Origin: Diplocarpon mali
Lineage: Eukaryota > Ascomycota > Leotiomycetes > Helotiales > Drepanopezizaceae
Direction of reading: 5' to 3'
NCBI GenBank assembly: GCA_024741835.1
Contig: JAENRP010000327.1
Coordinates: 1 to 49,537 of the forward strand
Length of the DNA: 49,537 nt
A program made the position numbers and the translations under genes. Below, one piece after another: positions 15,932-49,537 of this stretch. How positions within the stretch are numbered: the first letter of the stretch is position 1; every line of letters begins with the position of its first letter. The notes below the pieces were generated by a model. The model was given only the letters and a program-made list of their open reading frames with translations. It was not told where the DNA came from and did not search any database.

Positions 15932-15959
15932 TTAAATAAAGAAGTTCTTCTCCGCTAGG

Positions 15960-17560: not shown

Positions 17561-17579
17561 AGGAAAAGACTCTTACTTA

Positions 17580-21530: not shown

Positions 21531-21549
21531 AGGCTAAATGTAAAACAGG

Positions 21550-21942: not shown

Positions 21943-22227
21943 AAAGTCAGCGATTAATTCGATACTAATTCGAGTTGAACTTATAGCAACTATCGCCTAG
22001 ACCCCTTCCAGCTAGCTTACTATAGCCTTAGCTATAGAGTAGAGCTTCGCAAGGCTAGTACGCTCCAGTTAGGAGCAGCTAATCGGAGCCTTTATACTAG
22101 CTATTAGTAGGAGGTTAACGAAGATCTAGGCGCGCTAGACCGCCTCTTAACGGAATATCTTACGATTCCCTATCAAAACCGCATGCGCGTTGTCGTCGTC
22201 TTTATTATTATCCTCCTCTTACTACTA

Positions 22228-22560: not shown

Positions 22561-22831
22561 TACTTATAGTAGTTAATAGTAGTAGTAGTAATTATTTCTA
22601 CTACTATACATTAGCCCTGCGCTATAATAGTAGGAGTAGGAGACCTATATAGTTATATATAGTTATTATACTAAAGAAGGAAGATCCTATAAGAGGAAAA
22701 ACAAATTTGAGTATATAATACAACTTACGCTAAACTAAATATAGAATAGTACCGTTTGTATAATAACGCGCTAAGTACATTACTATATAAAAATCGTTAC
22801 AACCTACTAACGCTTATAAGCAAGCGTTCTT

Positions 22832-22846
22832 AAAAGGGGGGGGTAG
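22832..22846 (+). promoter_or_regulatory. Polypurine tract of the chromovirus
   Basis: AAAAGGGGGGGGTAG directly abuts the 3' LTR start. Polypurine tracts prime plus-strand DNA synthesis during reverse transcription. Confidence 0.85.
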
Positions 22847-23163
22847 TATAATAGCTATACCCCTAATTGATACAATTACCTAGGAGTACGGCGTTTATAG
22901 CGTTTTAAGGTTTTATAATCTCGATTTAATATAGGGTTATTTCGAATCGACCCTAAAGGTGCAAAAGGATATTCTTATATAATATTACATAAACGGGCAA
23001 AGAGCCTTAAGCTGCTGATGTATATAAAGGGAGAAGGGCTCTCCTATAAGGAGGGCTCTCTAACTTCTTCATTTCCTTCGTATTAGACCTATAGAATACG
23101 CCTTTTGCACCACTTCTTGCTCCCATACTTGATCTCGCACTTCGGCGGTTCTATATCGTTATA
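22847..23163 (+). repeat. 3' LTR of the chromovirus
   Basis: 317 bp, the same length as the 5' LTR. Its outer ends are mutated (TATAAT for TGTAAC at the start, GTTATA for GTTACA at the end). Confidence 0.92.
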
Positions 23164-25785: not shown

Positions 25786-26170
25786 TATAGGTTCTATACC
25801 GGTAATCGATATTCATATGAATATAATTAAGTACTTATTATTAAAAAGAATCTATTATAATATCTGTCTATCTCTATATAACCGAGATAGTACCTTTATA
25901 CTTATAAATATCCTCCTTCCTATAGTCCCTCCTAGCCGTATATAGATATCCTTCTAAAGTCCTCCGGCTAAATAGCTGTAGGTTCTATACCGGTAATCGA
26001 TATTCATATGAATATAGTTAAGTACTTATTATTAAAAAGAATCTATTATAATATCTGTCTATCTTTATATAACTGAGATAGTACCTTTATACCTATAAAT
26101 GTCCTCCCTTTTATAGTCCCTCTTAGCCATATATAGATATCCTTCTAAGGTCCTCTGGCTGAATAGCTGT
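25786..26170 (-). repeat. Tandemly duplicated ~191-bp LTR-terminal segment
   Basis: Two head-to-tail copies (25790-25980 and 25981-26170) both begin GGTTCTATACCGGTAATCG and end AATAGCTGT. They differ mostly at C/T and G/A positions. A third copy starts at 49456-49461 and runs off the window end. The matching left edges of the first and last copies suggest the outer end of the minus-strand Copia LTR on the left and the inner end of its partner on the right. Confidence 0.7.
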
Positions 26171-28029
26171 TTGAAATATATATGAAACCCCTTATATCGC
26201 ATATGGTATAGCTATATAAGATGACCTTAAGAATAAGGACAGCTTACCTCCTATATAAGAATCTGTATACTAATACTAGCAGTACTTTCTTTTAAAAAGA
26301 CCTTTTCAACTCGCATAAGGAAGTATATAGAATAGGTATATAATAGAGGCAGATTAGTAGCAAATAATCAAATGGTAATAAAGAATAAAATAGCAAAGAC
26401 AAATAGCTTAATAGCAAAAAAAGGTATAACAAGTGATAAGGATAGTATATAGGAAGTAGAATAGCAAAGATAAGGTCAAATAGTAAAGAGGGAAAGGAAA
26501 GGTATTTAAGTAATAGAAGCAATCTAAAGTCTTTATTCGAGCCTTATAGTAGTGCGATTATAGTCCAGTTGCGTTTTAATAGGTTTGAGACTCTTTATTA
26601 AAGAGTCATCTGGAGTTGTAATCTATTATAGCTATAAATTATAATAATCTATAAAAGGGAAAAGAGGGGCCTTTAAGAAGGCATATATATTAAGCTTCCC
26701 TCCTCCTTTAATCTCTCAACTCTAACTCCCACTTCTTATAAGTAGGTCGATTCCCCTTCTTACTTTTAAGTTGATTAACCCTTTAATAGATCTTATCTTA
26801 TATTATCTTATTACTAATATTATTATTATTAGTAAGTGCCCTAATAGTTGGCCGACCCCCTTTGATATATATATTGCTGACTTAGATAGTACTCGAATGC
26901 AACTTAAAAGATCTGCCTAAGGCCTTTTAAATACTATGCGTATATTATACGCATATGATATTAAAAAAGGAGGCTAATAAGAATAATACCGGCTATATAT
27001 ACGCCTTTAATACTCTTACTTTTAAGAAGTATAACTACTATATTACGCAATAGGCAAAGTATATCTTAGTAAGTGCCCTTTAATATCCTCTTACTTTAAT
27101 AACCTTTAATAGATATTCGTTTTAAATACCTATCTAAGCTTAAGATAAGTATATTATCCTTTAAAATGCTTAAGTTAGCGGTAATATTAAAGCAATCTAA
27201 GAGATAGCCTAAATCCTATTTAAAAAGACTTAGATATAAATCTCTATAGTCCCGAAGACTTAAGATGTCCTTTAGCTAGCCTAGCTAAATAAAGCTTATG
27301 CCCTTTACTATAGTATCGACCTTGCGAACACTTAGTAAGCTATAAGTGCCCTTGAATCTATCTAATATTAATAACTAACTATTTGCAAGATCTATTGCGT
27401 ACTGTCTAAGGTAATAATATTACCCTTAGGCGTCTTAAAACTTAAGGCGCTAAGGTGCTCGGCTCCCTTTAGCATATAAAGAGGCTATCTAGCTTAGCTA
27501 AAGGCCGCTCTTAAGCTCTCTTTAATAATATCTGCCGCTAAAAGGGCAAGGGCAGATAGGTCCCTTTTAAAGGCTCTCTAAAGGGCAGGGATCTAAATCT
27601 TAATAATTTAGATAAACCGAATCTAAAGGAGATCGCAGCCGCTCTTACTTAAGTGTAAGCTTAAAAGGAGCAGGCCAACTTAATTGCTATTTCAAGTAAT
27701 AAGGCCTCTAGGACTTAAAGGGCTAAGGATCTACGCCCTAGAAATCCTAGTACTTAAGATAGGTACTTATTAAAGGTAGAATCATTAGTAGATCGTTATC
27801 TTTAGTAATATAATAATTGCTGCTTTGCTATAACCTCCTTCTTAAGTACTACTTAAGTGATAAAAAATGCAAGTACGCGCAGGTAAGTAAGAAAAGATAA
27901 AAAGAAGGTAGTAATAGCAAGTATAGGAATATAGTAAGAAAAGATAAAAAAAGAAGGTAATAATAGCAAGTATAGGAATATATCTTATAGTAAAATAAAA
28001 AAATAAAAAAAATTACTAATAGCTTATAA
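26171..28029. other. AT-rich RIP-mutated sequence, not assigned
   Basis: Lies between the duplicated LTR-end segment and the Copia RNase H. It may hold the rest of a long Copia LTR plus 3' non-coding sequence. The region 26,900-27,800 reads on the plus strand like decayed coding sequence (...ALKLSLIISAAKRARADRSL...), perhaps an older transposase or gag, but I cannot name it. A minus-strand 76-codon frame at 26292-26522 is Leu/Tyr/Ser low-complexity and not called. Confidence 0.3.
27886..27981. repeat. Tandem duplication of a ~47-bp unit
   Basis: AGTAAGAAAAGATAAAAAG... to ...GCAAGTATAGGAATAT occurs twice (27886-27932 and 27933-27981), with a few substitutions and two extra A residues in the second copy. 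Confidence 0.8.
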
Positions 28030-31346: not shown

Positions 31347-31593
31347 TATAGAGACCTGAGATGGATAGGTCTTGTGATATATATCACATGATCGGCGTAG
31401 GCCGGTAGGAGGATAAAAGGGCCACCTTTTGTATATAGAGACAGCGCGTGTCGCTATAGTACTAAATATACTCTATACTTAGGACTTATCCCTAATATCT
31501 TATCTAGGAGAGCCCGCTTATAGTACTTCCTCCTCTTGTTTTTAAGTCTTCCCTTAGGCCTATTCTTATATTATCTCCTTTTTAAGTTTTATA
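31347..31593 (+). repeat. 5' LTR of the giant element
   Basis: 247 bp, TATAGAGACC... to ...AAGTTTTATA, a mutated TG...CA. It contains GGATAAAAGGGCCACC as a TATA-like core, followed by GTATATAGAGACAGCGC. Confidence 0.85.
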
Positions 31594-31879
31594 TTAGTGA
31601 CCTATATAAGGACTGATTTCTTAAGATTTCTATCCCTATACGACCTTATCGATCTCTTAGTTTATAGATAAGAGACCGGCCTTTGAAATACGTCTTTAAA
31701 ACACTTATAGCATTTTAATTAACTTTAAAACCCTTATCCTTAATCGCTTAGTTATTTAAAACTATCGATTTTCGTTTAGTAACTATTAATAACCTTAGAC
31801 TTTCCCTTTTCAGCTCTGCTCCGAAAACCCCTATTCTCTTCCTTAACTCTGAGATTTTCGGAATTTTCGGCTTCCTAGT

Positions 31880-34800
31880 ATGAAAAGTTTGGCGAACCTT
31901 ATAATAGCAATCTTAAATAGCAGTAGTTTTGAGTACTCGAGTAATACCAAGCGCAAACTCTAACTAGAAGTGCCTCCTTAGAATCCTTAGAAATCCGAAT
32001 CTGATAATTCAGCCGCCTTAGCTTAATAAAACTCTAAAAATTGCCTTAGAATCGTCTTTAAAGACCCCTTTATTCTAAGGACCAATAGGAATTGGCTTAA
32101 AGGCTAAGAAGAATCTTAGATATAAACCTTATCTTAGAAATTAGTCCTTAATTAAGTAAACCTTATCTTATTATAATTAGTTGCAACGCTCTTATTAGCT
32201 GTTTAATACCTACTTAAAATCTCTTAGCAAACTTAGATTAAACTTTTAATAGAATCCGGAATTCTACTCTTAAGCCTAGCCTATAAGTAGGAGGATAAAA
32301 AGATATCCTTAAACAACTTAAGACTGCTACCTACTTTTTTAATATTAATACTAGAAAATACTAAAAATAATAACAATTTTAAACTTTTTACTAACCCTTT
32401 ATCTAAATCTTTTTAAACTCGTCTTAGTCACTTTAAGATTGACTTGGATTTTAAACGTTCTTTAAGCCCTTTTGAATTTCGAAGTACTCCTTTTAGCAAT
32501 TAATCTCGCAATATTAAAGCTTTCCCTTTGCCTCTTATAGATTCTATCAACCTAGATAGTTAGTATAAAACGATAATGGCCGCATTTAAGGCTATTACTA
32601 ATCACTTTCCCCTCCCTAATTCCCTTAGCGCTCCTCACTTTATAAGCGCCAATATTACTAATTTCCTTAAGTAATATAAGGAAACTTATTACGATTTTGG
32701 TATTATATAAGAGGATATGATTTCTCGACTTCCTTACTATTATAACTATATAAGCAAAGATATTATCAAATCCCTCCCTAAATAGAAAATGCATAGTTTA
32801 TAAGAACTCCTTATCAAGGCTCTTAAGTCTGAATTCCGAGAATTTGATAAATAGTAGATTCGCAATACCTTAGCTTTCTTAAAGGAATTTATTCTAATCA
32901 CTCGTACTCTTAAGGAACTTAAAAACTACTATCGGACTTTTACTTATATATCAAACACCTTAATTAGCTAGAAAATACTTAGCGAAGTTAAAAGAGGCCG
33001 CCTTTTCTTACTTAGATTATCTACTAGCCTTTAAAACAAAATTATTAAGCATTTCAAGATCGATAAGTAAGACCTTATAACCTTTATCTCATTTAAGGAA
33101 TTCTCAGCCTTTGCTTTAAAATCAGATCTTAGTAAGAGAACCATTAATGCTATAGAGTAGGAAAAAGCCCTTACTCCTTCCTATACTAAAGACCTTAAGA
33201 GCCTGGTCTAAGAATACTTAAAAGCTTTAAAAGTTATAAAAGAGGTAAAGAAGAACCTAGTAGTCATACCTTTCACTTATAGGCCTAACCTAAGAATAAG
33301 ATCCAACTCCAGAATTAAGGAACTTAAGACCTAATTTGCAAAACTCCGAATTTAAAGCTTAGAAACTAAGATTAATAATCTCTTATAGGAAAAATAGTAT
33401 ATTCCTTAATTTAGTAATAGATAAAACTCGGCTATTATAAGCCAATTTAATAGTTCCTATTATTAGACTCCTGCTTCTTATCATTTGGAACAACTAGCTA
33501 ATATAAGAACGCAATAGCTGGCTAAAGAAGGAGGAATTGATCCTAACTAGCACTCTGCCAATATCAATGCTATAAGGTACTAAGGAAATAGCAATAGAAG
33601 ACGACTAACCTACAACTTTTGCAATAATAAAGAACCCAACTATACTCTATATAAGTATCGCAATAATTGCCCTCTTTTCCTTCGTTTTATTAATACTAGG
33701 GTTATATATATTAATAAGTATAGGATGCTTTACATTAGGGATCCTAGGCTAAAAGCTATCCCTATTAAAAAGCACTAGAATCGCTTATAGTTATAAACTA
33801 TTCGAACGATAATATATAGTATAAAATAGGATAAGAATTTAATCGAACGATAGTATATTATAAATATAAACGCTAAAATCCCAACTTATATATATATAGG
33901 TCCAACTAGTAATCTACCTAAAGGAGTTCTTAAGGACCTAGCTTCTAATCAAATAGCTATAGAAGTTAAAGGCATCTCTATCTTAAGATAGGTTAATAAT
34001 AATATTTCAGCTGATATTAATACTGCTTCTATATCTAAGAACCCTTGGAATTCTCAGCGTCCTTTTAGATCTTCTACTCTATTAATACTAATAAAACCAG
34101 CCAAAGTCCAGAAATCAGCATATATAACTTAGGAATCTTAATATAGAGTCTAAATGTTAAAAGATACCTAATAATCTAAAACTATAATAGATAAAGATAA
34201 AGCTAATATAGTAAATAAATTGATTAGAGATATAATAGACGAAGATAGCTTTAAGCTTAAAGATTAAGAAATTGAAGTTATTACGCAGACTCTTAACCTT
34301 AAGCGAAAGAGATAGATATTAAAATAGGAAAAATTTATTAATAAATACGCTAGTTCAACCGCAATAGAGAAAGCTATAGAGAATATTATAGCTTAGCAAA
34401 TTAACCTTATATTTAAAGACCTATTTAGTTTAATTAGACGCTTTAATAAAGTTCTAGGAAAGCATATCCTAATAGCTTTTAAAGATTTGAATAATAATAA
34501 GGAAATGGAAATTGTAATGTAAAAGAACTCTGAGAAGCACTTAGCCTTAATCAAATGTCTTTAGATTATAAAAAATAAAGGAACCTAGAGGTACTATAAT
34601 ATTATAGCAATAGCTTTAATATCTTAGAATATTAATCGAAATTGTTTAATAGTTATAATAAAAAGCCCTATTATTATTTATTTAATAGAAGAATCAATTA
34701 AAGCAAAGGCTTTAATCGATTATAGTTCAGAAGTTAATATAATAATTAGAAAAGTGGTAGAAATAGCTCAATTGATAATCGTTAGCGATCGACTCCTTAT

Positions 34801-35161
34801 TTATTCGACTGTCTTTAGATTAAAATACAATTTTAATAGATAGGTGAAAAATGTAAAGGTTAAAGTTAAAGGAATTGTTAATTATATTAACTTTCTAATA
34901 ATAGAGAATTCTTCAAATGATATTCTTTTAAAAATGCCCTTTATTTTAAAATCTTAGCTAATATTTAACTATCCTAGAGATAGGCTTATAAAAGCTAGCC
35001 TTTAGAATATAGATTAATCCTTAAAAGGATAAATGGTTATTATAAGAGATATAGCCGAATTCTAAAATAAGGTTTTAGGAAACGATTAGCTAATATAAGG
35101 GCTAGGCTTAATGCTAATAAAGGAGGGCACTTAGCAAGGAGTTATAGCAAAAGAAAGGTAA
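31880..35161 (+). pseudogene. Gag-protease frame of the giant element, RIP-inactivated
   Basis: A single codon phase can be followed from ATG 31880 to TAA 35159-35161, about 1,093 codons, broken only by RIP-type stops. The middle part reads as a retroviral-like Gag (TLISQKILSEVKRG-like, then FISFKEFSAFALKSDL). A Cys/His cluster near 33,610-33,665 (FCNNKEPNYTLYK..NNC) is a plausible mutated zinc knuckle. An aspartic protease follows with ALIDYSSEVNII at about 34,709-34,744, from a DxGS active site, then NDILLKMPF. No palindromic repeat was seen in this frame, unlike the rest of the element. Confidence 0.7.
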
Positions 35162-35189
35162 GTTTATCGATTTTAAATAATAGTAATTT

Positions 35190-35214
35190 GACTCGCGGTC
35201 CTAGACTAGGAGTC
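35190..35214. repeat. In-frame palindrome 1 (protease-RT linker)
   Basis: Arms GACTC...GAGTC with central TCCTAGA. In the pol frame it reads LTRGPRLGVK. The flank AAATCTGGAATTTTAAAA is shared with palindrome 5. Confidence 0.75.
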
Positions 35215-35351
35215 AAATCTGGAATTTTAAAAAATAATGCAATTAGCGTTTTATCGGCTTAATAATTAAGAAAAAAGAAAAATAAGGTAAAGAAGAGAGT
35301 TTATTTTATAAATTTCGATAATTTACTAATCATTTTAAAAAACCTAAAAAC

Positions 35352-35375
35352 CACTTATAGGCCGGACCTGCGAGT
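35352..35375. repeat. In-frame palindrome 2 (protease-RT linker)
   Basis: Right arm CCTGCGAGT pairs with the left arm ACTTATAGG once RIP changes are reversed. Reads TYRPDLRVK in the pol frame. Confidence 0.75.
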
Positions 35376-37318
35376 AAAAAATAATAAAATTACTAATAAT
35401 ATTTCTATCTACGCACTTTAAATTAATGACTTAGAAAATCTTTTATTTGTTTTTAAAAAGGAAAATTCGGATCGTTTCGCAGGATTTGATAAAAAAGGAA
35501 AGAAGTAGAGAAGTATAGTACTAGCTAATATTCGAACTATATATAAAAGCAAGGCTAATAAAGTACGATCGGTAGATTAGGGAATCTTTAATAGCTTAAA
35601 GCCTAAAGGATTAGATAATTAGTTTAAATAAGATAAGAAGCTTCGACCTTTGAAGCCAAGTAGTAAATTCGATAAGTTTATTATAGGTAGATTTTCTAAT
35701 AAACCTATCGGATATCGACTAATAAAAGAACATTTTAATATATTAAAAATTGGAAAAGACTTAATAAAGTAAGAACGCGAACTATTTTATAAAACCTTAA
35801 TAAATCGAGAGGACACTTTAGCTTTTGACTAGACGGAACTTAGCTAGATTCAAGAAGAGGTTACGCCTTATATTAAGATTAAGATAATACCTTATAAAGC
35901 CTAGCAAAAGAAAACATTTAGGATCCTTAAAGCTCTTTAAGAAAAGGTAATCGAAATATTAAAGGATAGGCTAAAGCAAAGTATTCTCAAGTTCTGTAAT
36001 AGCCCTTATAAGAACAAATAGTTCCTAGTTGCTAAAAAGGAGAAGGGAACTTACAGATTAATAATAGTAGTAGTAAAAATGAACCGAGTAACTATTAAAG
36101 ATGCTAATATTCCTCCGAATATAAATGAATTCTTAAATAAATTCGTAGGATTAACCTATAGCTCTTTTATTAACTTCTTCTTTAGATATAACCAATTCAT
36201 TCTTAACGTTAAATTAAGAGATATAATAGCAATTCAAACCCCTCTCAGGCTACTTCAAATGATAAGATTACCTTAAAGGGCTATAAATTCGATCACTCAA
36301 TTTGTTTAAGTAATCTATAAGATACTAGTAGATTATATACCTAATATTATACTCCTTTATATAGATAATATAAGAGTAAAAGGATTAAGATCATTCTATA
36401 ACTATAAAGAAGTTCTCCTTAGTATATAACGATTTATAATAGAACACATTCAGAACTTAGACTAAGTGCTTATACAATTCGAAAGGGTAGGAGCAACAGT
36501 TGGTCCGAAGTTATAATACTATCTCCTATCAATGGAAATTGTTAGTTTCATTACTAATTCTAATGGCCGAAGTCCTTAAAGGGCTAAAGTACTTAAAATC
36601 GATAAATAGAAGAGGTATAATAATATAGTAAAAGCTCGTACGTTTATTAGAGTTATAGTATACTATCGCATTTGAATTAAGGATTTCGCTAAAAAGGCAG
36701 CACCTATTTATTCCTTATTTTAAAAAGGGGCTGAGTTTTAATAGGAGAAACCTTAAATAAAGGCTATGAAACAACTAAAGTAAGTATTACTTAAGGCGCC
36801 TTATCTGATTAAAATAGACTATAAAGCCAACGCTAGGCCAATTATACTAATAGTTAATACAAGCTTAATCAGATAGGGTGCCATCCTTTAATAAGCTAAC
36901 AGTTAATAGAAAAGACATCTAGCTCACTTTGAAAGTAGTCTTTAGAATCTAATAGAAACAAAGTATAATACTATTAAATAGGAATGCAAAGGCGCCTTAA
37001 AGGCAATGAAAAAGATAAGAAGCGACCTTTATAATACTCACTTCATTCTTAAAACCGATGCTAAAGTGCTAGTAAAACAACTAAATAGAGCTATAAGCGA
37101 CCTATTAAAAGCCTTACTAATAAAATGGATTGCTTAAATAAGACTAATAGACTTTAAAGTTAAATATATTCTAAGAATAAAAAACACCGCTGCCGACGGC
37201 CTTTTAAGAAGAACTCAGCCCTACCCCTCTAATTTAATTAAAGAAGATAAAACAGATATTAATAAGTAGGTAAAAAACGAAGTTAGTTATCTATTAATAT
37301 ATCGCCTTAAAGGGATTC

Positions 37319-37343
37319 GACTTGTAAGCCTAGCCTATAAGTC
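37319..37343. repeat. Palindrome 3 (RNase H-integrase linker), different frame
   Basis: GACTTGTAAG, centre CCTAG, then CCTATAAGTC. The pol frame reads it as RLVSLAYKSNK, so here the palindrome is shifted relative to the common peptide phase but stays open. Confidence 0.75.
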
Positions 37344-38753
37344 AAATAAGAGAATTTTATTACCTAACTACTTAAGTGACTCCAAAGAAATCGCAAAGTT
37401 TTTAATCATACTTAAACGATTAAAGATAGTTACTCCTAAGGATTTTCAGAAATTCAAAGCTAAAGCTTTGATTTATCTAGTATAAGGAAGACGATTATTT
37501 AAAAGGAGCGATAACTTATTCCTTATATAACTCTGCTTAAACGATGAAAAACTAAGGGCTAAGGCTATTTAAGATATTTATAAGGAAACTAGCTATTAAG
37601 AAGCTAAGTCCACTTACTACTAACTCTTAAGAAAATTCTTTTAAAAAGGCTCTTTTAAGGACTGTAAAGCTTTTATAAAGAGTTGCATCCTCTATTAGAA
37701 ATAAAAACCTAGTTATAAGGAAAATCCCTTATTCCTAACCTAGCCATTAGGCCTTTTCTATAAAGTCAGCCTTGATATTATATAAGTACTAACTACTAAG
37801 AATAAGATAATATATTTTATTTTAGCAAAAGAAGACTTATTAGGATAGCCTAAAGGACGACCTTTAAGATCTGCTAACTCTAAATCTATTATAAAGTTCC
37901 TTTAAGAAGATATAGTCTATTACTATAGACTTTTTAATAGATTAACTATTAATAGAGGCCTTAAAAACAAAGGAGTAGTTGAAGCTTTCTTATAAAAATA
38001 TAACATTAAATAGGTTCAAATCTCAGCGTATAACTTAAAAGCTAATAAAGTAGTAGAATAAGGATACTATAACATTCTTGATAGTCTATCCAAAGTTACT
38101 TATAGAGGATTTAAGGATTAGATAAAACGCTTTTATAAAATACTTTTTACTTATTGAATAATAATCTATAAACCGACTAGAGTTATACTATTCTTCCTTA
38201 TCTATAGCAGAAAGGCATAGCTCCTTCTTAAATCCTAATAGCCTATTTAAAGATTGTTTAACTATAGTCAAATTCGGAACCGTTCTAATTTGCTTATAAT
38301 AAGATGCCGATAACTTAAACTCTAAGATATAAATATAAAGGAAATCATTCTACGAAAGAAACAATATTAGGAAAAAGCTAAAGAAGCGTAGGCTACTTCT
38401 AAAGTACTTAAAACGTACCCTATTCGAAAAGATAATCTTATCTTAGTCTATAATATTATAAAAAGTATTAATATATTAGTAAATACTAAACTTGACTATC
38501 GATAGCTTAGTCTATTTAAGGTTAAATCCAAGTAGAAAGAAAAGGGATACTATTCTCTTTAGGAACTTAATAGAATCAATATTAAAAGAACCTTCGCAGC
38601 CAATCGATTAAAGCGCTTTTATTAATACAACCAGACCTTATTCCCTTTAGAAGACGAATCAGAAATTGATATAACCTTTAAATCCTTTATAAGAACCGAC
38701 GGCGATATAAGCAATTTTGAACCCTTAGATAAAGACTAAGATTTTTCCAATTT

Positions 38754-38777
38754 GACCTATAAGCCAGTCTTGCGAGT
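38754..38777. repeat. In-frame palindrome 4 (pol C terminus)
   Basis: Right arm CTTGCGAGT; left arm ACCTATAAG. Reads LTYKPVLRVK close to the end of the integrase frame. Confidence 0.7.
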
Positions 38778-38802
38778 AAAGAATATTAAAATACTTAACT
38801 AA

Positions 38803-39171
38803 TCGCAACTTTAAATCATTATTCTTAAAATATTTAAAGAATATAAGCGGGAATACTAAACGATTTCTTAGCCTATCAATTGTCTTACCTTCCTTTAATC
38901 CTTATTTTTACATTTTCAGCAAGGTCGCCTCCTTTATTATTTAAGATATAGATCTTTTAAGATCACTTTAAATTCTTGCCTACTCTGACTTATTTTGCAT
39001 TTTTAATATTAACCTTTAATTATAATATTCCTATTACTTTCCTTAAATAATAAATAAAAAGTCCAATTTCCTTAATATATATATAGCAAACCTATTGCAG
39101 CTTATATGCCCTTTTAATTCTTATACCCTATTAAACTCTCTTATTTATACTACCTATCTTTTATAAGCAAT
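38803..39171. other. AT-rich spacer between pol and accessory ORF 1
   Basis: Low-complexity RIP DNA with no clear frame. The pol frame may extend a little into it if TAA 38800 was originally CAA. Confidence 0.4.
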
Positions 39172-40016
39172 ATGCCTTTAAAGAACTTACAAATGGTTTT
39201 ATCTATTATAATAAAGGATAAATAAGCATTAGTTATAAACTTCTCTTAGGATAGTAGAGCTATTACATTATTAAAGAGCTTTAAATCGACCTACGCAGCC
39301 TTAGGAGATATAGAGCAATAAAAACTCCTTTCAGCTTACGCGAATGCTATTAGTAACCTTTTAACCTAGGTAGCCTCTAGAATTCTCTAATTTAACGACT
39401 TCTTAACTAAAGAATTAAGACTAAAGGGAATCTTTAAAGAGGAATTCTTAGCTAATGCAGATTAATATATAACCTTGGCTAACACTTTTAAAATGGACTA
39501 AGATAAAAGAGAAGAATCTATTTAACGATTGGATAATTTAGCTACTAATAAGAGAGGACTCCTATTTTATTCGCGCTTTCTAATAAATATTAATTTTAAT
39601 AATAGAAGACGAGTATTATTAAAAATTCTTAAGAAAAACACTCCTACCGCTTAAGCTATTCAGATTCTCAATTTCTTTATTATTTAAGAAAGAGTAGTAA
39701 AATTCCGAGGCAATCGAATTTGCAATTGCAGATTTATAGGCCTATCTAATGCAGTACTTATAGCAGCTGATAGGGCTATAAAAAGATTAAATTAGGCTAT
39801 AGATATTACCCTACCTAATAGTACTATTATTAATATACTAGGGCTTTGCGCTTCTGCTTATAGTTTGCTTATTTTAAAAGAGAACTGGACTCTTATAATA
39901 GGGTTTAAACGAGATTTTTTTAATAATAAAGAAGGGAATTGGTTATTTATAATTAAGCCTGCTTTAAAATTCGCTTCTTAACCTAAAGATATAATAAGTG
40001 TTAAACTATATGATTT

Positions 40017-40041
40017 GACTTGCGATCCTAGATTAGGAATT
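40017..40041. repeat. In-frame palindrome 5 (accessory ORF 1, first)
   Basis: GACTTGCGATCCTAG core; reads LTCDPRLGIK. Sits at the position matching palindrome 8 in accessory ORF 2. Confidence 0.75.
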
Positions 40042-41402
40042 AAAAATGAGAATTTTAAAACTGGACCTAACTTGCCTTTTGCTAAAATAATTCTAGAAAC
40101 CGCTATCGAATAAACTGCCCAAACGCTTAGCATAGCCTTTTTAGAATTTTCAAAATCTTTAAGGGACTCTCCTTTAGCTAAACAACCTATTTTAGCTTGA
40201 CCTTTAAAAAGGATAGATCGTTTAATAGCTACTTTAGCTAATTTGCAATTTAAAACCAAAGGATTGCGCGCTCGCTTAGACTCCTTTTTTAATAACTTAA
40301 AAGAGCTAGTTCTTAACTTCTTTATATCTATATGCAACCGTTTTAGAAATAATAATATAAGGGAAGACCTTATTCTTACTACTTTAAAGATAACTAAGAG
40401 AGCTATTAGATAGATTTAATAGCTTATCTTAAATGAGTTCGCCTTTATAGATATTATTTAATTCTTTAATAATTATAGAAGTTAAAAACCTAGTCTCTCG
40501 GATGCTAAGCAAGACTATTTTATCTTATAAGAAAGAGAATGCGAAGAGGAATCTATTAATTAGGACATTTGTAATTATAGCAATATGCTTCAATCGGTCA
40601 TTCTTAACCTTAAGCTTAGAGAATAATATAACATTTAGGTATCTTTTATAATAAAGACTCGCTTTCGATAGTATCTTCTTAGCGCAGGGATTAAAGGGAG
40701 AAGACTTTGCAACCTTTATATTCGCTCTCTTTCGGTTTACTATAGTCTTAATTATAAAGGATTTAATATTAATAAAACTATTAAATACCTCGAACTTCTT
40801 TATATAGTAGAAGATATTGATCTTTTTCTAATCTACCTTAATAATTAGTTCTTTGTCTCTTTAAAGATATGTAAATCCAACCTATTAATAATAGAGGCAT
40901 CTCTAGGTGCTATAAAATTTAAGGCTGATCCTAAAGCCTTAAAGGCATTAGAGCCGATTAAATAGAATAATTCTTTCTTTTCGATATTATTAAGTAATAA
41001 ATAGCAAGAGGAAATAAAAGAAGAAGGGTCAATTATAATGCTTAAACCCTTCAGATGCCGCTTCTTAACCGACAATTTTACTATTAATAATAGTGCTTTT
41101 ATAAGTATATTCCTCTCTATTATAAGATAAGAAGTAAAGATATACCTTTATCACTTCTGCCCTATGGATAACGCGACCTTTATACCTTCTTATTTTCTTT
41201 ATAATATAATATTCAGCCTTACTTAATAAGTCCTTCAGATATATTATAAACTCTACCTCTTAGCTATAATAGCAAAAAGTAAAGGAGCCTATTAGCTTAT
41301 AGCCTACTTTAAACCTCTTTAATTAATTGGCCTTAGTCTTTATAATTAAGTTGTTTTAATAAAGAAAGATATAAGTGCTACTAATAAAGAAATTCCGATT
41401 TT

Positions 41403-41427
41403 CACTTGCGATCCTAGCCCGCGAGTC
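41403..41427. repeat. In-frame palindrome 6 (accessory ORF 1, second)
   Basis: Right arm GCCCGCGAGTC is unmutated; reads FTCDPSPRVN. Matches palindrome 10 in ORF 2 by position. Confidence 0.8.
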
Positions 41428-42287
41428 AATTTTATTAGAAAGTAAGTCTTAGATTATCAGATCCTATTAATCGGATAAGGGCCAGCTTTTAAAAGCCTTA
41501 ATAGGTAGGTTAGCTTTTAATCAATTATAAAACTCACTCTATCTGCAAAGAAGATAAGTCGATAGACTTCCTAGGCATTTGGTTTAAAATCTCAACTAGC
41601 TTAAATGATCGCAAAGTTAAAGCGAAAGGAGATCTTGCGACCTATTACTAATAATAGTAATCTAATTATAGTAATAATAAAATAGAAACACCTTTTTAAA
41701 ATGCTTTTAGACAATTCTTATAGGACTAGTGGTTTTATAGCCTTTTGCAATAACTATATAACCATCCTTAATAAGAATACCTTAGAAAATAAGACTTGAA
41801 TCTCCGATTTTATCTTTTCAATCTCTACTTTAAAGCAACCTCTAATACCTTAATAGATTAATGCAAGTAGAACCACTATACCTTTTAAGGCAGCTTTTCA
41901 TCTTAAGAACTATAGTAGCCTTTTTAAAGCTATTATTAGTCGACGCTCTTAAATAGATCTATTAGTTATAATCGAAGTATAAGAGTTATTTCTTCTTAAT
42001 AAAGACGAATTGAAAATCCACCTTATAGAATATAATTAGAAGCTCTTTAATACCCTTATTAAGGCCTAGATAAACGTTATAAACACTAAGTCGCTTCTTT
42101 ATAGACTCAAGTCTTAAAGATAGCGCAATAAAGTAAATGCTATCCAAGAGCCTAATGCACTAATTAATAAAGGCATTATTGTAAGGAAATTCGGAAAAGA
42201 GATAAACCAAGACTCTAGTATAGTATTAGACCTTGATTTAGGAACCAATCCCCTGTTTTTACCCTTAAGCTTAGAAACGCTAAGACT

Positions 42288-42311
42288 GACTTATAAGCCT
42301 AGCCCGCGAGT
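42288..42311. repeat. In-frame palindrome 7 (accessory ORF 1, third)
   Basis: GACTTATAAGC, CTA, GCCCGCGAGT; reads LTYKPSPRVR. Matches palindrome 11 in ORF 2 by position. Confidence 0.8.
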
Positions 42312-42489
42312 AAGGTTAGACTCAGCTGGCTTAAGCCTATAAGATAGTTCAGATGAACCTCGGTTACTAAATCTAGGGGTACTAATAGAAGATCCTTTAA
42401 AAGAGGTCCCTAAAGCTGAGAAATCGCTAAGAAATAAGAACTAATATAAGAGAAGAAGACTCCAAAGTAATAATAGAACTAATAATTGA

Positions 42490-43082
42490 GTCGACTTAAG
42501 CCTAGAGAATCAAGTCTACTACCCCCCCCCTTAAATACCATTTAAAGAGATTGCAAATTAAAAGTTGAATTTTTTTAAAGATTATCTACTTTTTATATAC
42601 CTATACCTCTTTATTCTCAACCTATTGTTTTATTCTATATATATTCTTTATTTACTTTACTCTTTATATAATTCATTCTTTAATTATTCCCTTTATATGC
42701 AACTTTCTAACGCTTACCTTTGAAATATCTTCCTCACCTTTAACAATTATCATTCACTAATTATAGGTCCTTATATATATTACACCCTACTTTTATTCCT
42801 ACTTCCAAGCTTATTATACCCACTTTTCCTATATGCACTAGCGCGATTTCAAACTCTATAAATAAGCCTCTCCCCGCACTACGATTTTACTTTTTTTACT
42901 TTTTTTATAACCCTATTAGACCTATAATACCAGCATTACTACTATTATCTTTTATTATCAATCTTTTCTAGTATAAGCCTCTTATATTATTAATCTTTCT
43001 TAAATAATCATCTCTTTATTTAAAACTACTCCTCCCTACTAAATAATTCATTATAGCACTACTAAGCTTAAGCAAAAGAGCC
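42490..43082. other. Spacer between the two accessory ORFs
   Basis: Contains a C9-10 run near 42,522-42,531, then T-rich AT DNA. No frame is supported. Its length (about 0.6 kb) and composition resemble the 38.8-39.2 kb spacer before accessory ORF 1, as expected if the ORF was duplicated together with its upstream flank. Confidence 0.4.
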
Positions 43083-43939
43083 ATACCTAAGAAGAATATA
43101 TCAGTTATAGCTTTAGGCAGCAAACCCTTAAACACTACTAATAATAAACTAATATTAAAGGGTAACTTTTCATAAGATAGAAAAGCTCTAAGATTATTAG
43201 AAGATATAGTAAGCACCTATAGAACGTTAGGTAAAATAGAATAGCAAGTATTCCTAAACTTATCTATAGAAGTATTAAACTATAGAATTTCTACTATAAA
43301 AGAAGGATTTTTAGGCTTCGATGATTTTCTTAAGAATAAGCTTAAGACAAAAGGGATCGATTATGAAAAATTTCTATAGGAATATCAAAGGTATACTAAT
43401 TCAATAGATTTATTTTAAAAAAATCGAAACAAGAAGAATAAGTGTATGAAAAGATTATTGCAATTTATAAGTAGTACCTATAATACACTTTTCCAAACCT
43501 ACTTCATAACTGACATTATTACTAATAACGCCCTATAGAGGCTTGGCAAAATCTTTAAGATATACTAACCTATAGCAAAGGCCATATAGGTATTAAATCA
43601 TTTCACTATTTAAGAAGGTATAAAGAAGCTATAAGGAAACAGTATTAAAGGCAGAAACTTTATTAGGTTCTTAAGCACTATTATATACTCTACCATTCAG
43701 ACTATAAAAGATGAACCCTTATAGTATAATAATTTTGCACTTCCTAACCAAACTATTCTAAATATACTTAGCCTCCAATAGTCGCAATATAGTCTACTTA
43801 TTATAAAAGAAAAGATAACTTATCTCGCCGAGTATACTATGAATTACTTTGATAATAAGTTAGAAAGATAGGAGTTTATTATCCCTATTACTTTAAAAAT
43901 GCTACCACCCTTAGTAGGAATAACTGATAAAGAGAATTT

Positions 43940-43963
43940 GACTTATAGGCCTGGCCTATAAGT
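43940..43963. repeat. In-frame palindrome 8 (accessory ORF 2, first)
   Basis: ACTTATAGGCC and GGCCTATAAGT around one T: perfect 11-bp arms even after mutation. Reads LTYRPGL, RIP stop, V. Confidence 0.85.
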
Positions 43964-44125
43964 GGAATTAGCATATAAGGAGAATGTCCTTAAGCCAAAG
44001 GTGCCTATAATACTAGGAACTCAAGCAGCTGACCTGCCCGACTACTATTCCTCCGACTCAGACGAATTTAAGTCATTATCCTTAAAAATGCCTTAAACAC
44101 CCTAAATACTAGTAGCAAAGAAAAT

Positions 44126-44150
44126 GACTCGCGGGCCTAGCCTATAGGTT
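44126..44150. repeat. In-frame palindrome 9 (accessory ORF 2, extra copy)
   Basis: Left arm GACTCGCGGGC is unmutated; right arm GCCTATAGGTT. Reads MTRGPSL, RIP stop, VN. No counterpart was seen in accessory ORF 1. Confidence 0.8.
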
Positions 44151-45355
44151 AATATATATAACGTTATAAACTTAGAAGATGAATTATCTAATAAAGAAAT
44201 AGGCACTATTACTAATGTATTAGAAATTTTTAATAATATTAAGAAGGATACCGCCGATATTATACAATCTTTCCTTAATAACTTATAAAAATTTATTCTC
44301 AAATTCTATAAGTTAATAATAAAGCGTTTAAGAAAAGAAGGTTAGGAAGAAGTCTTATTAGCATAAGAAGGGATAATAAGAGCTATTAAGCAAATTATAA
44401 AACTGCTATAAGATGAATTTTCTATAGATAATATCATATAGTTCTTTATTAAGTATAAGAAATTAAAGGATGACTTTTATATTCTTAAGGAGAAATCCAA
44501 AGTTAATATAAATATTATCTCTATAGAATGTTATTAGGTCCCCTTTAATATAAAGATAATACTATAGCATAGCAATAGTTTTAAGATAGTAGTAATATTA
44601 AAAATGAAGATAAGACTTGCAAAGTTTATAATAGGAATATTTAAGGACTTTAATTTTGAAAAGTTCTACGCCCTTTATAAATGCTAATATATATAATACT
44701 ATAGATTGGCAACAATAGGCCTTACTAATAAAGATATATCGTCTAATATCTACAAATTTTACACTGCTCTTAACCTAACCTTGTTTTTATTACATCTAGG
44801 AAATCATACAATTATAGCCACTAGCAATAGAATAGCAAGCCAAGTTAAGAAGGATATATTGTTAGGCTTTTCTAAGTTCAAAGTAGCACCTAAAGCCCTT
44901 AAATTATTCTATAATATCGCATAGACCCCTGCTTAGTATAATGCTATACTAACTATTAACAACTTTATATCATTCCGCAGCAAAGGCTTTTTAAATATAC
45001 CTAAGTTGTTTAGCTGCGCCTTTTTAAGCGCTGTATATATATATAATCATAGTAATTATAAAAAGAATTCATTTTTAACATTAGCATAAGAAGAACTAGA
45101 AATATACTAATACCACTTCTAGACCTTAGATAAGAAGCCAAACCCCCCCTCTACCTACCTTTATAATATGACTTATAGCTTAATACAATAGATACTAAGG
45201 ATATATTATAAATTATACCTAAGTGCTTTACTAACTTGATATAAGTCTTTATATAAACTAGTAATATATTCTAAGCCTATATAGTTTATTAGAATTAACT
45301 ACTACTTAAGAGTTATTGCTACTAAGATTAATACTAATATAAGATTTATAAGATT

Positions 45356-45380
45356 GACTCTTAGGCCTAGCTCGCGGGTC
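45356..45380. repeat. In-frame palindrome 10 (accessory ORF 2)
   Basis: GACTCTTAGGC, CTA, GCTCGCGGGTC; reads LTLRPSSRVN. Confidence 0.8.
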
Positions 45381-46177
45381 AATCCACCTGATAATAGAAC
45401 TATTGACTACTATATGATTCCAGCAGTTAAACAATCGACTAGAGAATTCGCTATTTAAGAAAAATCCTATAAATTATCAAATCTCATACCCTAACGCCCT
45501 AAGAATGCTTAATAGATCTTACTAAATCTAGCTCGAAATATAGTATAATAGAAAGAATTAAACACTAGAGAGAAGATACTTCTAAAGGAGTATATCTCTA
45601 ATAAGATAACTCCGTTCTCTATATTTACTAAATAAGGCATATTCGTTAATATAGAATCTGCTAAAGAACTAGGAAAAGGTAGCTTTCTTACTATTAGCAA
45701 TAACTATATAAAAGTTATTAGTAATAACTTATTAGAGAATAGCATAGACCTAGAAGATTTTCTTATTAATTCTATTAGTATAAAGAGACCTAGTACTGCA
45801 AGATAGAGTATTACTAGAGAATCGTTAGCCAAATTTCATATAACACTTAGCATAACAAAAGGAGGCCTACTATCAGAGGCACTCGTAGGGAAACGGCTAT
45901 AGAACAATCCATTAGTAGTAATAATAGTAAAGGAGTTATTCTCTAAAGATATGACTTAATTGATAATATATCTAAAGAAGCATAAGTAGGAACTTTTTAA
46001 TAATTTCACCTATACCTAGAAGCTAATTCAATAGTTAGAGCTACAACTGTATAGGGATAAGTCCTAGACTAAGACAAAAGGCACTAATGATAATATTAAG
46101 GCTAATAATATAATTAATAAGATAATTCTTCTCGAAAAGTATAGCATTAAGAAACCTTATGCTAAACCCTTTAATAC

Positions 46178-46202
46178 AACTCCTAGGCCTAGCCCGCAAC
46201 TT
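46178..46202. repeat. In-frame palindrome 11 (accessory ORF 2)
   Basis: Core CCTAGGCCTAGCCCGC; reads TTPRPSPQL. The most degenerate of the in-frame copies. Confidence 0.65.
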
Positions 46203-46526
46203 ATATCAACTAAAGGCAAAGAAAAGGAAGTATTATTTATTAAATTGCCCGCCTTATCCTCCTCTACAGTAGAAGACTCTTTAAAGGATAATAATAATAA
46301 TAAAGAGGATAATAATAATAACGCTATAATATAAGTCTCCCTTCTTATTAGCAAAAGCCGTCAAACTATACTAGCATCTTTATAAAATACTAAAGCTCTT
46401 GCAATACTAAGACCGGACTCTTCTAATACTAATAGTAAACTATTAAGAAGAAGTAGGCGCTCTATAAAGAGAGTATTATCTAATAATAGTTCTCCCTATC
46501 TCCTAAAGAGAACTAAGGAAAATTGA

Positions 46527-46823
46527 TATTTAAGTTAGTACTATTTTTAATTATTTTTATAACTCTATAGCTTATTTGTTTATTTTACTAGTTTCGTTTT
46601 CTGACTCCTAGGCCCGGCCTATAGGTGAAAAGTATATAAAAAAAACTCTTTTTTTTTCCTTTTACCTTTAATAATAATATAGCCCTAGTTTAGGCCTTTT
46701 AATATATTAGTTTTCTCGCACTTAGGGTTTGCTAATAATTGATATGCTATTGCCTTAACTTATATTATTTTATATTCTTTACTAATAGTAGTAGGGGCTA
46801 CTACTTTTATTATTTAGGATATA
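46527..46823. other. 3' untranslated region of the giant element
   Basis: AT-rich, with one palindrome copy at 46603-46626 outside any frame. The polypurine tract is weak: AGTAGTAGGGG at about 46,785-46,796 is the best candidate, about 25 bp before the LTR. Confidence 0.4.
46603..46626. repeat. Palindrome 12, non-coding copy in the 3' UTR
   Basis: GACTCCTAGGCC then CGGCCTATAGGT, 77 bp after the stop of accessory ORF 2 and about 200 bp before the LTR, outside any frame I can support. Confidence 0.7.
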
Positions 46824-47070
46824 TATAAAGACCTAAGATAGATAGGTCTTATAATATATATCATATAATCGGCGCAAGCCGGTAGGAGGATAAAAGGGCC
46901 ACCTTCTATATATAAAGACAGCGCGTATCGCCATAGTATTGAATATACTTTATACTTAGGACTTATCCCTAACATCTTATCTAAGAGAGCCCGCTTATAG
47001 TGCTTCCTCCTCTTGTTTTTAGGTCTTCCCTTAGGCCTATTCTTGTATTGTCTCCTCCCCAAGTTTTATA
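46824..47070 (+). repeat. 3' LTR of the giant element
   Basis: 247 bp, TATAAAGACC... to ...AAGTTTTATA, the same length as the 5' LTR and differing mainly at C/T and G/A positions. Confidence 0.85.
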
Positions 47071-49455
47071 TTATTTAAGGCGCCTATATTAATTAGGAAT
47101 CCTTAGAAGAACTGATCTATCTACTAGGTTATAAACACCTTAGGGTCCGTTTATATCAGTTTATTAACCCTTATTATTAAAAGGTATTTAGCCTTCTGCT
47201 TTTTAAGCTAGTTAAGCATAGTTCTCGAGTCATATTCCTTTTCAAAAGCTAGGAATACTATTATAAAGTTGATATTACTATCCTTAGGGTTACTAATTGC
47301 TTAATCCTCTTCTTCTAAAGACGTTTCCTATTCCTTCTTATTAGTCCTATTGCCCTTTAAATATACTCCTTTATCTTCCTATAAGAGGTATGCCTTATAT
47401 ATTTTATCTATTAGCTTATACCCTTCGGCTCGTTAGCTTACTATATAGCAAGACTTCTAAGCGGCTCTTTCTTCTTTTAAGTGCTTACTACTATAGTAGT
47501 CCTTTTTCTAGCATATAATACACCTTATATAGCCTGGTTTTAATTAAAAGGTTGTTCCTCTCTTATTACCTTAAGCAAACTTCATCTTTCTATTCGAAAA
47601 GTATACTATAGATTGCCCTTACTCCTTAGCTAAATAATATCAAAGTCTATTAGTAGCTAAACTAGAATGCTAAGGTCTAAATAGTCTGTCCTAGGCAACT
47701 ACTCTTACGCAAGCTTATAAGCTATCTAATAAAGCTAAGAACGTCGCTAGTAGCTTAAAAAGTGCTATTTGGAATAGCCAATTCTTAGAAACGCCTTATA
47801 TAAGTCTATCTCTAATCGATCGATCGTTCCTTATATTAGTATATAGGCCTAATTACAGGTTTTATAGCTCCTTAGTATAATTCTCAAATTAGGTTAGGAT
47901 CGGTTTCTCCCTCTAATAGTCCTCTTATTAGAATAGGTCAAATGTCAGCCGAAACCACCTCCTTAGGAATCTGCTACTTCTCTCTTCGGTCTTATAATTG
48001 GCCCGAATAGCCTCTATTAGCTTAGCAAACTTAAAGTTCTTATTTTATAAGTACTAATAGTAGTATATTAAGGCCGAGTCTTATAGTATAAATAGAAAAG
48101 CTTAATACTATATACTCTAGTCTATAAAGGCTCTTTAATATAAATCGGCAAATATATAAAGCTTCTTATTAAGGTGATCTTTCCCACTTAAGTACTAAGT
48201 CTTTTTAGTATATATCTTACTTAAATTTACAAGGGTTTTAGCCTAATCTAAAGTCAAAGGTTCTATAATATACTAGAATAGTTAAGCGTCGCTCTAATTA
48301 AAGTCTAGAAGCGCTCCTAGACCCCTCCCTATAGCAAAGGGTAGTAATAATCCGTCTTTTAATTAGATCAGCAGCATCAGTATTAGATTCAGGATCTCCA
48401 GGTATTACAAGACTAGTATTCGTCCTAATCGGAATTAATAAAGTATTCTTTTAAAGTTATATCATTCGGTTATTTATCTTAAAGTATCTACTTTATATAA
48501 GTTATCTTACAAAGTATTATTATATCTAAGGTATCCTTACCAAAGCGAGTCTTAGTGTAATGCCTCCTATTTAGCTATAGTAACCCTTTAAGCGAGTAGC
48601 TCGCTTATTCGCATAGATTTGGCAAATTCTAAAGTAGACTTTATTCTATATCTCGGAGATTATACTATAACCGAGTTCAGTACTTCTTAAGTCTATAACT
48701 CTAACTGATCTTCTAGCTACTCATTTCCTTCTTAGTATACTATATTGAAAAGTGCCTAGCCGATTGAAACGCCCTTCCTATACTAAATATATACTCTATA
48801 ATACTAAAGGTTATCCTTTAAGCGTTATCGAACGTCCTTATCTAGCGATTTAAAGTCGCTAATTATCTAATCTTAAAACTCCTTTCAAAAGTCCTTAGTA
48901 AGGTATAGCCCTCTCCTTTTACTATCTTATAATATCTTTTGGAAGTTCTTTATATATTAATCTTTTAATCTAAGGGCCTCTTCGCTAAGTTGATCCTCTT
49001 AGGGTCTTATATCCCTTTTAAGGTCCCTTAATATCTAAGGTTGCCTTAAATTAAGTAGTATTAATAGTCCTCCCTTAATCATTTCCTAATATTATCTAGA
49101 TATTACTTTACGCCCTAATAGGGTTTAAAAGAAGTCTAATATAGTTGTATTTTACATATTATTATACTATTATCTAATTATAGTTGGGATACCGATTGCA
49201 CTCCGGTTTTGCCCTAATTATAATACGTAATAGAATATAGGTAAAAGAGGATAGTATCTACCTTTAAAGTAATAACTCTGACTTATTTCGCGTACCTTTT
49301 GCCTTTTCCCCTTTAATAGTAACTGATATTACTTCATATATTTAAGTTAGTATTTAAGGTAAGCCGGAAATACAATTAAGTACTCTTTAAATCAAAAAAG
49401 AATTCTTTAGTTTAATAACCTTGCTATCTATAGTAAAGGTGCTACTACTAATTAG
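47071..49455 (-). pseudogene. Copia gag and 5' internal region, RIP-inactivated
   Basis: On the minus strand this continues the Copia element interrupted at 31346. Near the insertion it reads KEYDSRTMLN then LKKQKAKYL, pre-integrase or gag C-terminal sequence. Around 47,480-47,560 a degenerate zinc knuckle (KVYYMLEKGLLQ..ALKRRK) corresponds to a Cys/His box of the type seen in fungal Copia gag. Coding-like sequence (KFAKLIEAIRANYKTE near 48,000-48,030) extends toward about 48,900. The last 500 bp before the LTR-like repeat at 49456 have no clear frame and would be the 5' leader. Confidence 0.6.
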
Positions 49456-49537
49456 TATAGGTTCTATATTAGTAATCGATATTTATATAAATATAATTAA
49501 GTACTTATTATTAAAAAGAATTTATTATAATATCTAT
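49456..49537 (-). repeat. Start of right-hand Copia LTR, cut by window end
   Basis: TATAGGTTCTATATTAGTAATCG... matches the left-edge sequence at 25786 for the remaining 82 bp. Confidence 0.7.

What the first reader, a model, noticed from the sequence alone, without database searches (positions are those of the whole stretch)
35190..46626. Family of ~25-bp palindromes inserted in one reading frame through a retrotransposon
At least twelve copies of a palindrome (inferred ancestral arms GACTCGCGGGC and GCCCGCGAGTC around CTA) lie at 35190, 35352, 37319, 38754, 40017, 41403, 42288, 43940, 44126, 45356, 46178 and 46603. The ACT codon starts are phase 1 in pol and accessory ORF 1 and phase 0 in accessory ORF 2. 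So ten copies are translated alike, as a T-R-G-P-S-P-R-V-like peptide, in three different ORFs. A palindrome that keeps both DNA symmetry and an open frame recalls the Rickettsia palindromic elements that insert in-frame into bacterial genes. I know of no such element in a eukaryotic LTR retrotransposon. Copies 3 (other frame) and 12 (non-coding) suggest that spread acts on DNA or RNA and not only on the peptide.
Basis: partly seen in the sequence, partly recalled or inferred. Interest (0 to 1): 0.9.

Follow-up and report, generated by a model that had tools for sequence, protein, structure and literature searches.

The report
Palindromes spreading through fungal retrotransposons
A 25-letter near-palindrome sits, nearly always in the same reading frame, in at least four different retrotransposon families of a fungus whose closest matches are to the apple-blotch fungus, and nearly all of the related elements from other sources that were checked lack it, so it likely spreads from one jumping gene to another like a parasite of parasites.

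Summary
In detail: all twelve palindromes are where stated, ten share one reading frame, one lies in pol in another frame and one is probably non-coding; two more are at 32265 and 33274. But the setting is wider than one retrotransposon. In the 49.4-Mb genome a degenerate 25-mer matches 1296 times forward and 1281 times reverse (reversed-pattern control 0). The loci sampled fall into 21 contexts in at least four LTR families, two Ty3 and two copia. At 17 of 18 coding sites the codon phase is the same; intact proteins read T-P-G-P-G-P-R-V or T-R-E-P-G-P-G-V. Spacings of neighbouring copies are multiples of 3 in 31 of 31 coding pairs and 3 of 10 pairs judged non-coding. The common form is asymmetric and occurs in both orientations in one copia element. 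A sister copia protein from Rhynchosporium graminicola lacks the inserted block. Against: inside the window's element every row that could be checked is filled, one probe for an empty site found none, and arm pairing hardly exceeds shuffles. Best reading: an RPE-like insertion element whose hosts are retrotransposons. How it moves is unproven; template switching during reverse transcription is my guess.

The parts
31347..31596 (+). 5' LTR of the Ty3-like element (A)
   Evidence: 250-nt direct repeat, 89% to 46824-47073
46824..47073 (+). 3' LTR of element A
32201..34700 (+). gag region (approximate), codon starts = 2 mod 3, with many stops
   Evidence: stop profile and translation; no Pfam hit for a 300-aa piece; called gag by position
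34801..38990 (+). pol region (approximate), codon starts = 1 mod 3, many stops; RNase H recognised, integrase zinc domain just under its cut-off
   Evidence: 44% identity over 1085 columns to P0001 at 35527-38745
39001..42400 (+). accessory region 1 (approximate), same frame as pol
   Evidence: 29% identity over 1038 aligned columns to accessory region 2, E 4e-67
42702..46500 (+). accessory region 2 (approximate), codon starts = 0 mod 3
32265..32289 (+). palindrome copy, start of gag region or leader; if coding, other phase
33274..33298 (+). palindrome copy in gag region, reads TYRPNLRI
35190..35214 (+). palindrome copy, reads TRGPRLGV
35352..35376 (+). palindrome copy, reads TYRPDLRV
37319..37343 (+). 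palindrome copy between RNase H and integrase zinc domain, other phase (LVSLAYKS)
38754..38778 (+). palindrome copy, reads TYKPVLRV
40017..40041 (+). palindrome copy, reads TCDPRLGI; aligns with 43940 in the paralogous region
41403..41427 (+). palindrome copy, reads TCDPSPRV; aligns with 45356
42288..42312 (+). palindrome copy, reads TYKPSPRV
43940..43964 (+). palindrome copy, TYRPGL*V
44126..44150 (+). palindrome copy, TRGPSL*V; no counterpart in accessory region 1
45356..45380 (+). palindrome copy, reads TLRPSSRV
46178..46202 (+). palindrome copy, reads TPRPSPQL
46603..46627 (+). palindrome copy shortly before the 3' LTR, probably non-coding

Best explanation
The repeat is a family of 25-bp quasi-palindromes that sits in at least four different Ty3 and copia LTR-retrotransposon families of this fungus and likely spreads between them as a tiny insertion element, being kept, it seems, where it leaves the reading frame open. 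Shown by calls: genome-wide dispersal, several retrotransposon hosts, one codon phase at 17 of 18 coding sites, positions mostly between recognised domains, both orientations in coding phase within one copia element, variable tandem numbers, and absence of the block from a sister copia protein. Inferred: each site began as an insertion; copies out of frame were lost by selection; tandem copies arose by local duplication; the halves are sometimes homogenised or flipped by hairpin template switching; copies before 3' LTRs are non-coding. Guessed: movement between families happens during reverse transcription, when unlike RNAs share one particle and the polymerase jumps at hairpins. The peptide is probably passive linker filling.
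For: Degenerate 25-mer: 1296 forward and 1281 reverse matches in 49.4 Mb, some places on both strands, reversed control 0. 95 palindrome loci plus the window: 21 flank clusters, which I assigned to Ty3 elements A and B, copia elements D and E and a gag-LTR relative of A. Families are far apart: P0134 (copia D) to E 24% aa; P0001 (relative of A) to B 23% aa. One codon phase at 17 of 18 coding sites (A; B, D, E): binomial 7e-5 if two phases are open and equal, 5e-4 for 14 of 15 with paralogous pairs counted once. Spacings divisible by 3: 31 of 31 coding pairs, 3 of 10 non-coding; as distinct cluster-spacing combinations 11 of 11 and 2 of 5. Locus L022 has the asymmetric form in both orientations relative to its coding strand. 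Diplocarpon coronariae copia protein P0134 has TREPGPGV twice between Gag and Pol_BBD and TPGPGPRV three times between the SH3 domain and RT; its Rhynchosporium relative P0135 (59% identity, 1391 columns) lacks the first block between alignable flanks and lacks the motif at the second. Ty3 B: four D. coronariae proteins carry the motif; of the other 129 proteins returned (one search listed 120 of 628) only P0019 fits the loose pattern. One B site has one copy at 3 and two copies at 4 of seven places.
Against: No empty DNA site in this genome: one flank-joined probe gave 56 matches, of which seven places were read; six hold the palindrome and one its right half. All aligned rows of A are filled, including the 53 that were not fetched for that site. 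Pairing hardly exceeds shuffles. Target-site duplication is inconclusive: flank direct repeats exceed permuted flanks weakly (p 0.012), and AATT-rich flanks are self-complementary. Linkers vary in length anyway, so for A and B absence in relatives is not proof of insertion. Both orientations could come from in-place flipping. P0016 (LTREPGARV) and P0019 (TPEPSPQV), from unnamed sources, have similar peptides in the same linker, so traces may exist elsewhere. If 32265 is coding, the phase count is 17 of 19. No enzyme or intermediate was found.
Confidence: 0.6

Rival explanations
1. A functional linker peptide: TPGPGPRV-like repeats are protease sites or flexible spacers of retrotransposon polyproteins, and the palindrome is a by-product of codon choice.
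For: Copies lie between Gag and PR and between IN and RT (copia D), between RNase H and IN (A, B) and, by my reading of the translations, between PR and RT (B) and PR and IN (E); one phase at 17 of 18 coding sites.
Against: A copy after the pol stop of copia D, and probably non-coding copies near the 3' ends of A, E and a gag-LTR relative; another phase at 37319; the reverse orientation gives a different peptide (TREPGPGV); copies in Gag's N-terminus and in accessory regions; nearly all relatives do without it.
Confidence: 0.15
2. Seeding by ordinary recombination: the 25-mer arose once, was carried between families by gene conversion or chimeric reverse transcripts of longer segments, and multiplied as a minisatellite; it has no mobility of its own.
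For: Tandem units of 39-90 bp with shared spacers; at C280 the left half is replaced by a neighbouring minisatellite-like sequence.
Against: Flanks of different families fall into separate clusters with no shared DNA found at the sites, so little more than 25 bp seems to have travelled.
Confidence: 0.2
3. A cis-acting nucleic-acid signal (packaging, dimerisation or protein-binding hairpin) acquired by several elements.
For: 5 of 8 folded copies have shuffle z-scores of -2.65 or lower; copies near 3' ends in several families.
Against: Up to 14 copies per element, many decayed; 3 of 8 fold with z from -1.9 to 0.3; no clear covariation; the other LTR element of the window, 15617-23148, has none.
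Confidence: 0.05

Closest known systems
Rickettsia palindromic elements (RPE) and Wolbachia palindromic elements
   Same: Palindromic repeats that sit inside protein-coding genes without breaking the frame, and also elsewhere (PMC10969869 and PMC3767692, passages seen).
   Different: RPEs are 100-150 bp, bacterial, in chromosomal genes; these are 25 bp, in a fungal genome, and every sampled locus that I could assign is an LTR retrotransposon or a relative.
[quoted passage not shown]
   Same: Coding repeats with dyad symmetry, variable tandem numbers, association with mobile elements in some taxa (PMC2996958, abstract and passages seen).
   Different: PARCELs encode a 25-residue (75-nt) amphipathic domain in bacteria and some algae; these encode an 8-residue Pro/Gly-rich peptide.
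Quasi-palindrome template switching in yeast genes
   Same: A known process that homogenises inverted-repeat arms and inverts spacers in fungal coding DNA (PMC8604942, abstract; PMC3820800, search listing); it could produce the minority symmetric forms.
   Different: It changes existing repeats and does not by itself spread them between families.
Mobile GC clusters and double-hairpin elements of fungal mitochondria (recalled, not looked up)
   Same: Short, GC-rich, palindromic, dispersed in AT-rich DNA.
   Different: Organellar; not known to me from nuclear LTR retrotransposons.

Membership tests
Rickettsia palindromic elements | dyad-symmetric repeat family | tested here: met
   78.9% of arm cells pair, against 22-40% for slid partners; but one pair is open in 22 of 28 sites
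Rickettsia palindromic elements | located in open reading frames without destroying the frame | tested here: met
   18 coding sites, 17 in one phase; annotated proteins P0014, P0015, P0025, P0134 read through it
Rickettsia palindromic elements | length 100-150 bp | tested here: not met
   25 bp; flanks differ between sites
Rickettsia palindromic elements | genes of Rickettsia or Wolbachia as hosts | tested here: not met
   LTR retrotransposons of a fungal genome
PARCEL | 25-residue amphipathic tandem domain | tested here: not met
   8-residue Pro/Gly motif, units of 13-30 codons
PARCEL | dyad symmetry of the coding DNA and variable tandem number | tested here: met
MITE | target-site duplication | tested here: inconclusive
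   weak excess of flank direct repeats, p 0.012, confounded by AATT flanks
MITE | mobilised by the transposase of a related full-length DNA transposon | not tested
   no search for such a transposon was made

The most novel reading that the evidence does not exclude
A micro-parasite of retrotransposons: a 25-bp protein-coding quasi-palindrome that jumps between unrelated Ty3 and copia retrotransposons, in either orientation, and survives in polyprotein linkers because it reads open in phase both ways. It would be, to my knowledge, the first RPE-like element in LTR retrotransposons of a eukaryotic nuclear genome and the first whose hosts are themselves mobile elements, moved by reverse transcription inside shared particles.
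Probability: 0.45. Interest if true: 0.85.

Novelty: new variant of a known kind. Interest (0 to 1): 0.75.

Why it matters
In-frame palindromic elements have been discussed as a source of new protein sequence mainly in a few bacteria. Here the same principle appears in a eukaryote, with several hundred copies or more, several host families, annotated proteins that read through it and a sister protein without the block, so origin, orientation, frame choice and local growth can be studied together. If the element moves during reverse transcription, it would show that unlike LTR retrotransposons exchange very short sequences, and that transposons carry smaller parasites of their own.

Tried and rejected
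Empty sites inside the genome: one flank-joined probe at the Ty3 B gag site, 56 matches reported. C557 and C280 seemed to span the junction; I read these and five others. Six hold the palindrome; C280 holds its right half. Compensatory pairing: not established. Base frequencies by codon position (one search failed with a script error) looked favourable, but the scan that found the copies already demanded those bases, so the test is circular and not used. Target-site duplication: inconclusive. Known RNA families: 0 Rfam matches at gathering scores in the window and L108. Single element as explanation: rejected. Literature: eight searches; in the listings I saw no description of such an element in LTR retrotransposons; only open-licence PMC papers are covered. 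An early label of mine (B_gagPR) is wrong: in P0025 that motif lies in Gag's N-terminus, residues 52-59, before the zinc knuckle. One search was a first refiling that lacked fields and was not taken.
Full report
Observation. The twelve 25-mers are at the stated coordinates. A scan of the window finds 17 hits, against 0-4 in ten Markov-shuffled windows; the hits beyond the twelve are 32265, 33274, a weak 36140, and two low-scoring ones at 5261 and 5966 in GC-rich DNA. The twelve lie in one LTR element, 31347-47073, whose frames are broken by many stops in an AT-rich, RIP-like region. RNase H domains (above their cut-offs) and an integrase zinc domain (slightly below its cut-off) are recognisable. 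Ten of the twelve, plus the gag-region copy, are read in one codon phase, 37319 is read in another, and 46603 is probably non-coding.

Not one retrotransposon. The window is contig C327 of a 49.4-Mb assembly. A degenerate 25-mer matches 1296 times forward and 1281 times reverse (some places on both strands) with 0 in the reversed control; a strict symmetric pattern with up to 3 mismatches matches 96 and 98 times. I used 55 loci fetched by pattern (first or best listed matches, not a random sample; some overlap) and 40 short stretches that I chose from the listings to reach other contexts. Flank clustering of 208 hits (some from overlapping loci, a few weak) gave 21 contexts. Twelve clusters are sites of the window's element A (14 sites), three belong to Ty3 element B, three to copia D, two to copia E and one to a gag-LTR relative of A (my assignments). 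Seven large contigs with no listed match (2.69 Mb) have GC 0.45-0.61 in 19 of 20 sampled stretches and 0.27 in one, whereas the 95 palindrome loci have GC 0.26-0.43. The other LTR element of the window (15617-23148; 33% aa identity to B's protein P0014) has none.

Host. The best protein hits of B and D are Diplocarpon coronariae proteins. The fifteen commonest differences between B and P0014 are all of the kind that C-to-T or G-to-A changes give, so B here looks like a mutated copy of that element; proteins without stops are annotated in that species. The published D. coronariae genome is 51.2 Mb with 20.7% copia and 5.7% Ty3 elements, and the main text of that paper has no word beginning with palindrom (PMC11527701, passages). 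I take the host to be D. coronariae or a close relative (inference).

Form. Within a matched pattern set the asymmetric form (ACTCC....CGAGT or its reverse complement) has 694 places, the symmetric G..C form 62 and the symmetric C..G form 24. The model form reads TPGPGPRV in one orientation and TRGPGPGV in the other; with a CTA centre one of the three phases closes. In an alignment of 28 copies from different sites or array units, arms pair in 78.9% of cells, far above slid partners (22-40%) but about equal to partners shuffled between sites (78.0%; 143 of 500 as high). The covariation score is reached by 25 of 500 shuffles and the number of double changes by 35 of 500; the pair at columns 6-20 is open in 22 of 28. 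Of eight single copies folded, five have z from -2.65 to -5.62, one -1.91 and two about 0.25. So the symmetry is a family trait; selection for pairing is not established.

Frame and place. Of 18 coding sites (A 12, B 3, D 2, E 1), 17 use the same codon phase (A; others). I left out 32265, whose coding status is unsure; with it the count is 17 of 19. If the three accessory-region pairs count once (two are aligned, the third lies near both ends), it is 14 of 15. In D. coronariae proteins the motif lies between Retrotran_gag_2 and Pol_BBD and between SH3_retrovirus and RVT_2 (P0134), between the RNase H and integrase zinc domains (P0014, P0015) and in Gag's N-terminus (P0025). Spacings between neighbouring copies are multiples of 3 in 31 of 31 coding pairs and 3 of 10 non-coding pairs; as distinct cluster-spacing combinations, 11 of 11 and 2 of 5. 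Duplicate pairs and pairs with a spurious hit were dropped, and coding status was assigned by me per cluster. Selection on the frame would explain this. One copia D copy lies after the stop that matches the end of P0134; copies near the 3' ends of A, E and the gag-LTR relative are probably non-coding.

Orientation. In L022, whose coding strand is minus, the gag-PR copy and the IN-RT copies have the asymmetric form in opposite orientations. P0134 shows the two corresponding peptides, TREPGPGV twice and TPGPGPRV three times (its DNA was not seen).

Insertion. P0135 of Rhynchosporium graminicola is 59% identical to P0134 over 1391 columns. At the gag-PR junction P0134 has about two dozen extra residues that hold both TREPGPGV copies, between alignable flanks; at the IN-RT linker P0135 has its own sequence without the motif. 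For B, four D. coronariae proteins carry the motif; among the other 129 proteins returned (120 of 628 listed) only P0019 fits a loose pattern, with TPEPSPQV. Of 26 proteins aligned over the RNase H-integrase linker, 3 of them D. coronariae, P0016 shows LTREPGARV and P0019's TPEPSPQV lies in the same linker. These two may be traces or chance. Inside A, 97 of 97 aligned rows have the site filled; 44 of these were fetched for that site, and the 53 others are within 0-2 mismatches of the degenerate motif. A flank-joined probe found no empty site for one B site. So insertions would be older than the copies now present. The two accessory regions of A are paralogous (29% identity, E 4e-67); 40017 aligns with 43940 and 41403 with 45356, while 44126 has no counterpart. 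The flank repeat test gave p 0.012, which self-complementary AATT flanks could also produce.

Growth. At the B linker seven places have one (3) or two (4) copies; C29 shows three hits at 45-bp steps, context not checked. The copia D IN-RT linker has two to four copies in the five loci (one cut by the locus end), and copia E's array has seven and eight in two loci.

Mechanism. Insertion followed by frame selection and tandem duplication is my best account (0.6). Movement by template switching in reverse transcription is a guess that fits the LTR-element contexts; no intermediate was seen. Arm homogenisation and spacer inversion by template switching are documented in yeast coding DNA (PMC8604942, abstract) and would explain the minority symmetric forms and perhaps the flips.

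Comparison. It works like Rickettsia palindromic elements (PMC10969869, PMC3767692, passages) but fails their length and host; it resembles PARCELs (PMC2996958, abstract and passages) but lacks their domain. I file it as a new variant of coding palindromic elements, not as a member of either family.

Noticed in passing
window 39001-46500: Two long accessory regions after integrase are paralogous (29% identity over 1038 aligned columns); two 300-aa pieces and one 114-aa piece had no Pfam hit at E 0.01.
   Followed up: partly
window 15617-23148: A second Ty3-type LTR element with 300-nt LTRs and no palindromes.
   Followed up: partly
window 25786-26417 and 49456-49535: Stretches 90-94% identical to one end of L107, with a 191-nt tandem duplication at 25788-26169; perhaps remains of copia D.
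   Followed up: no
L107:984-1290: Matches the LTRs of the window element 15617-23148 (85-89%) and interrupts the match to P0134, apparently a lone LTR inside a copia D copy.
   Followed up: no
L054:948-1142, L104:194-388, L105:4213-4407, L106:2446-2638: A shared stretch of about 195 bp (85-93%), perhaps a lone LTR of copia E inside a B copy.
   Followed up: no
P0016 and P0019, RNase H-integrase linker: LTREPGARV and TPEPSPQV in relatives from unnamed sources, similar to the palindrome peptides.
   Followed up: no
L054, after its second palindrome in coding direction: A third unit keeps the start of the palindrome but seems to lack about 15 bp inside it (read by eye).
   Followed up: no
L097 (C280:40340-40940): The left half of the palindrome is replaced by an upstream minisatellite-like sequence; the right half remains.
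   Followed up: partly
L103: A gag region related to A lies close to an A-like LTR with two palindromes between, perhaps a non-autonomous relative.
   Followed up: partly
elements A, D, E and the gag-LTR relative: All four carry palindromes near their 3' ends, apparently after the last ORF; a possible entry point of the element.
   Followed up: no
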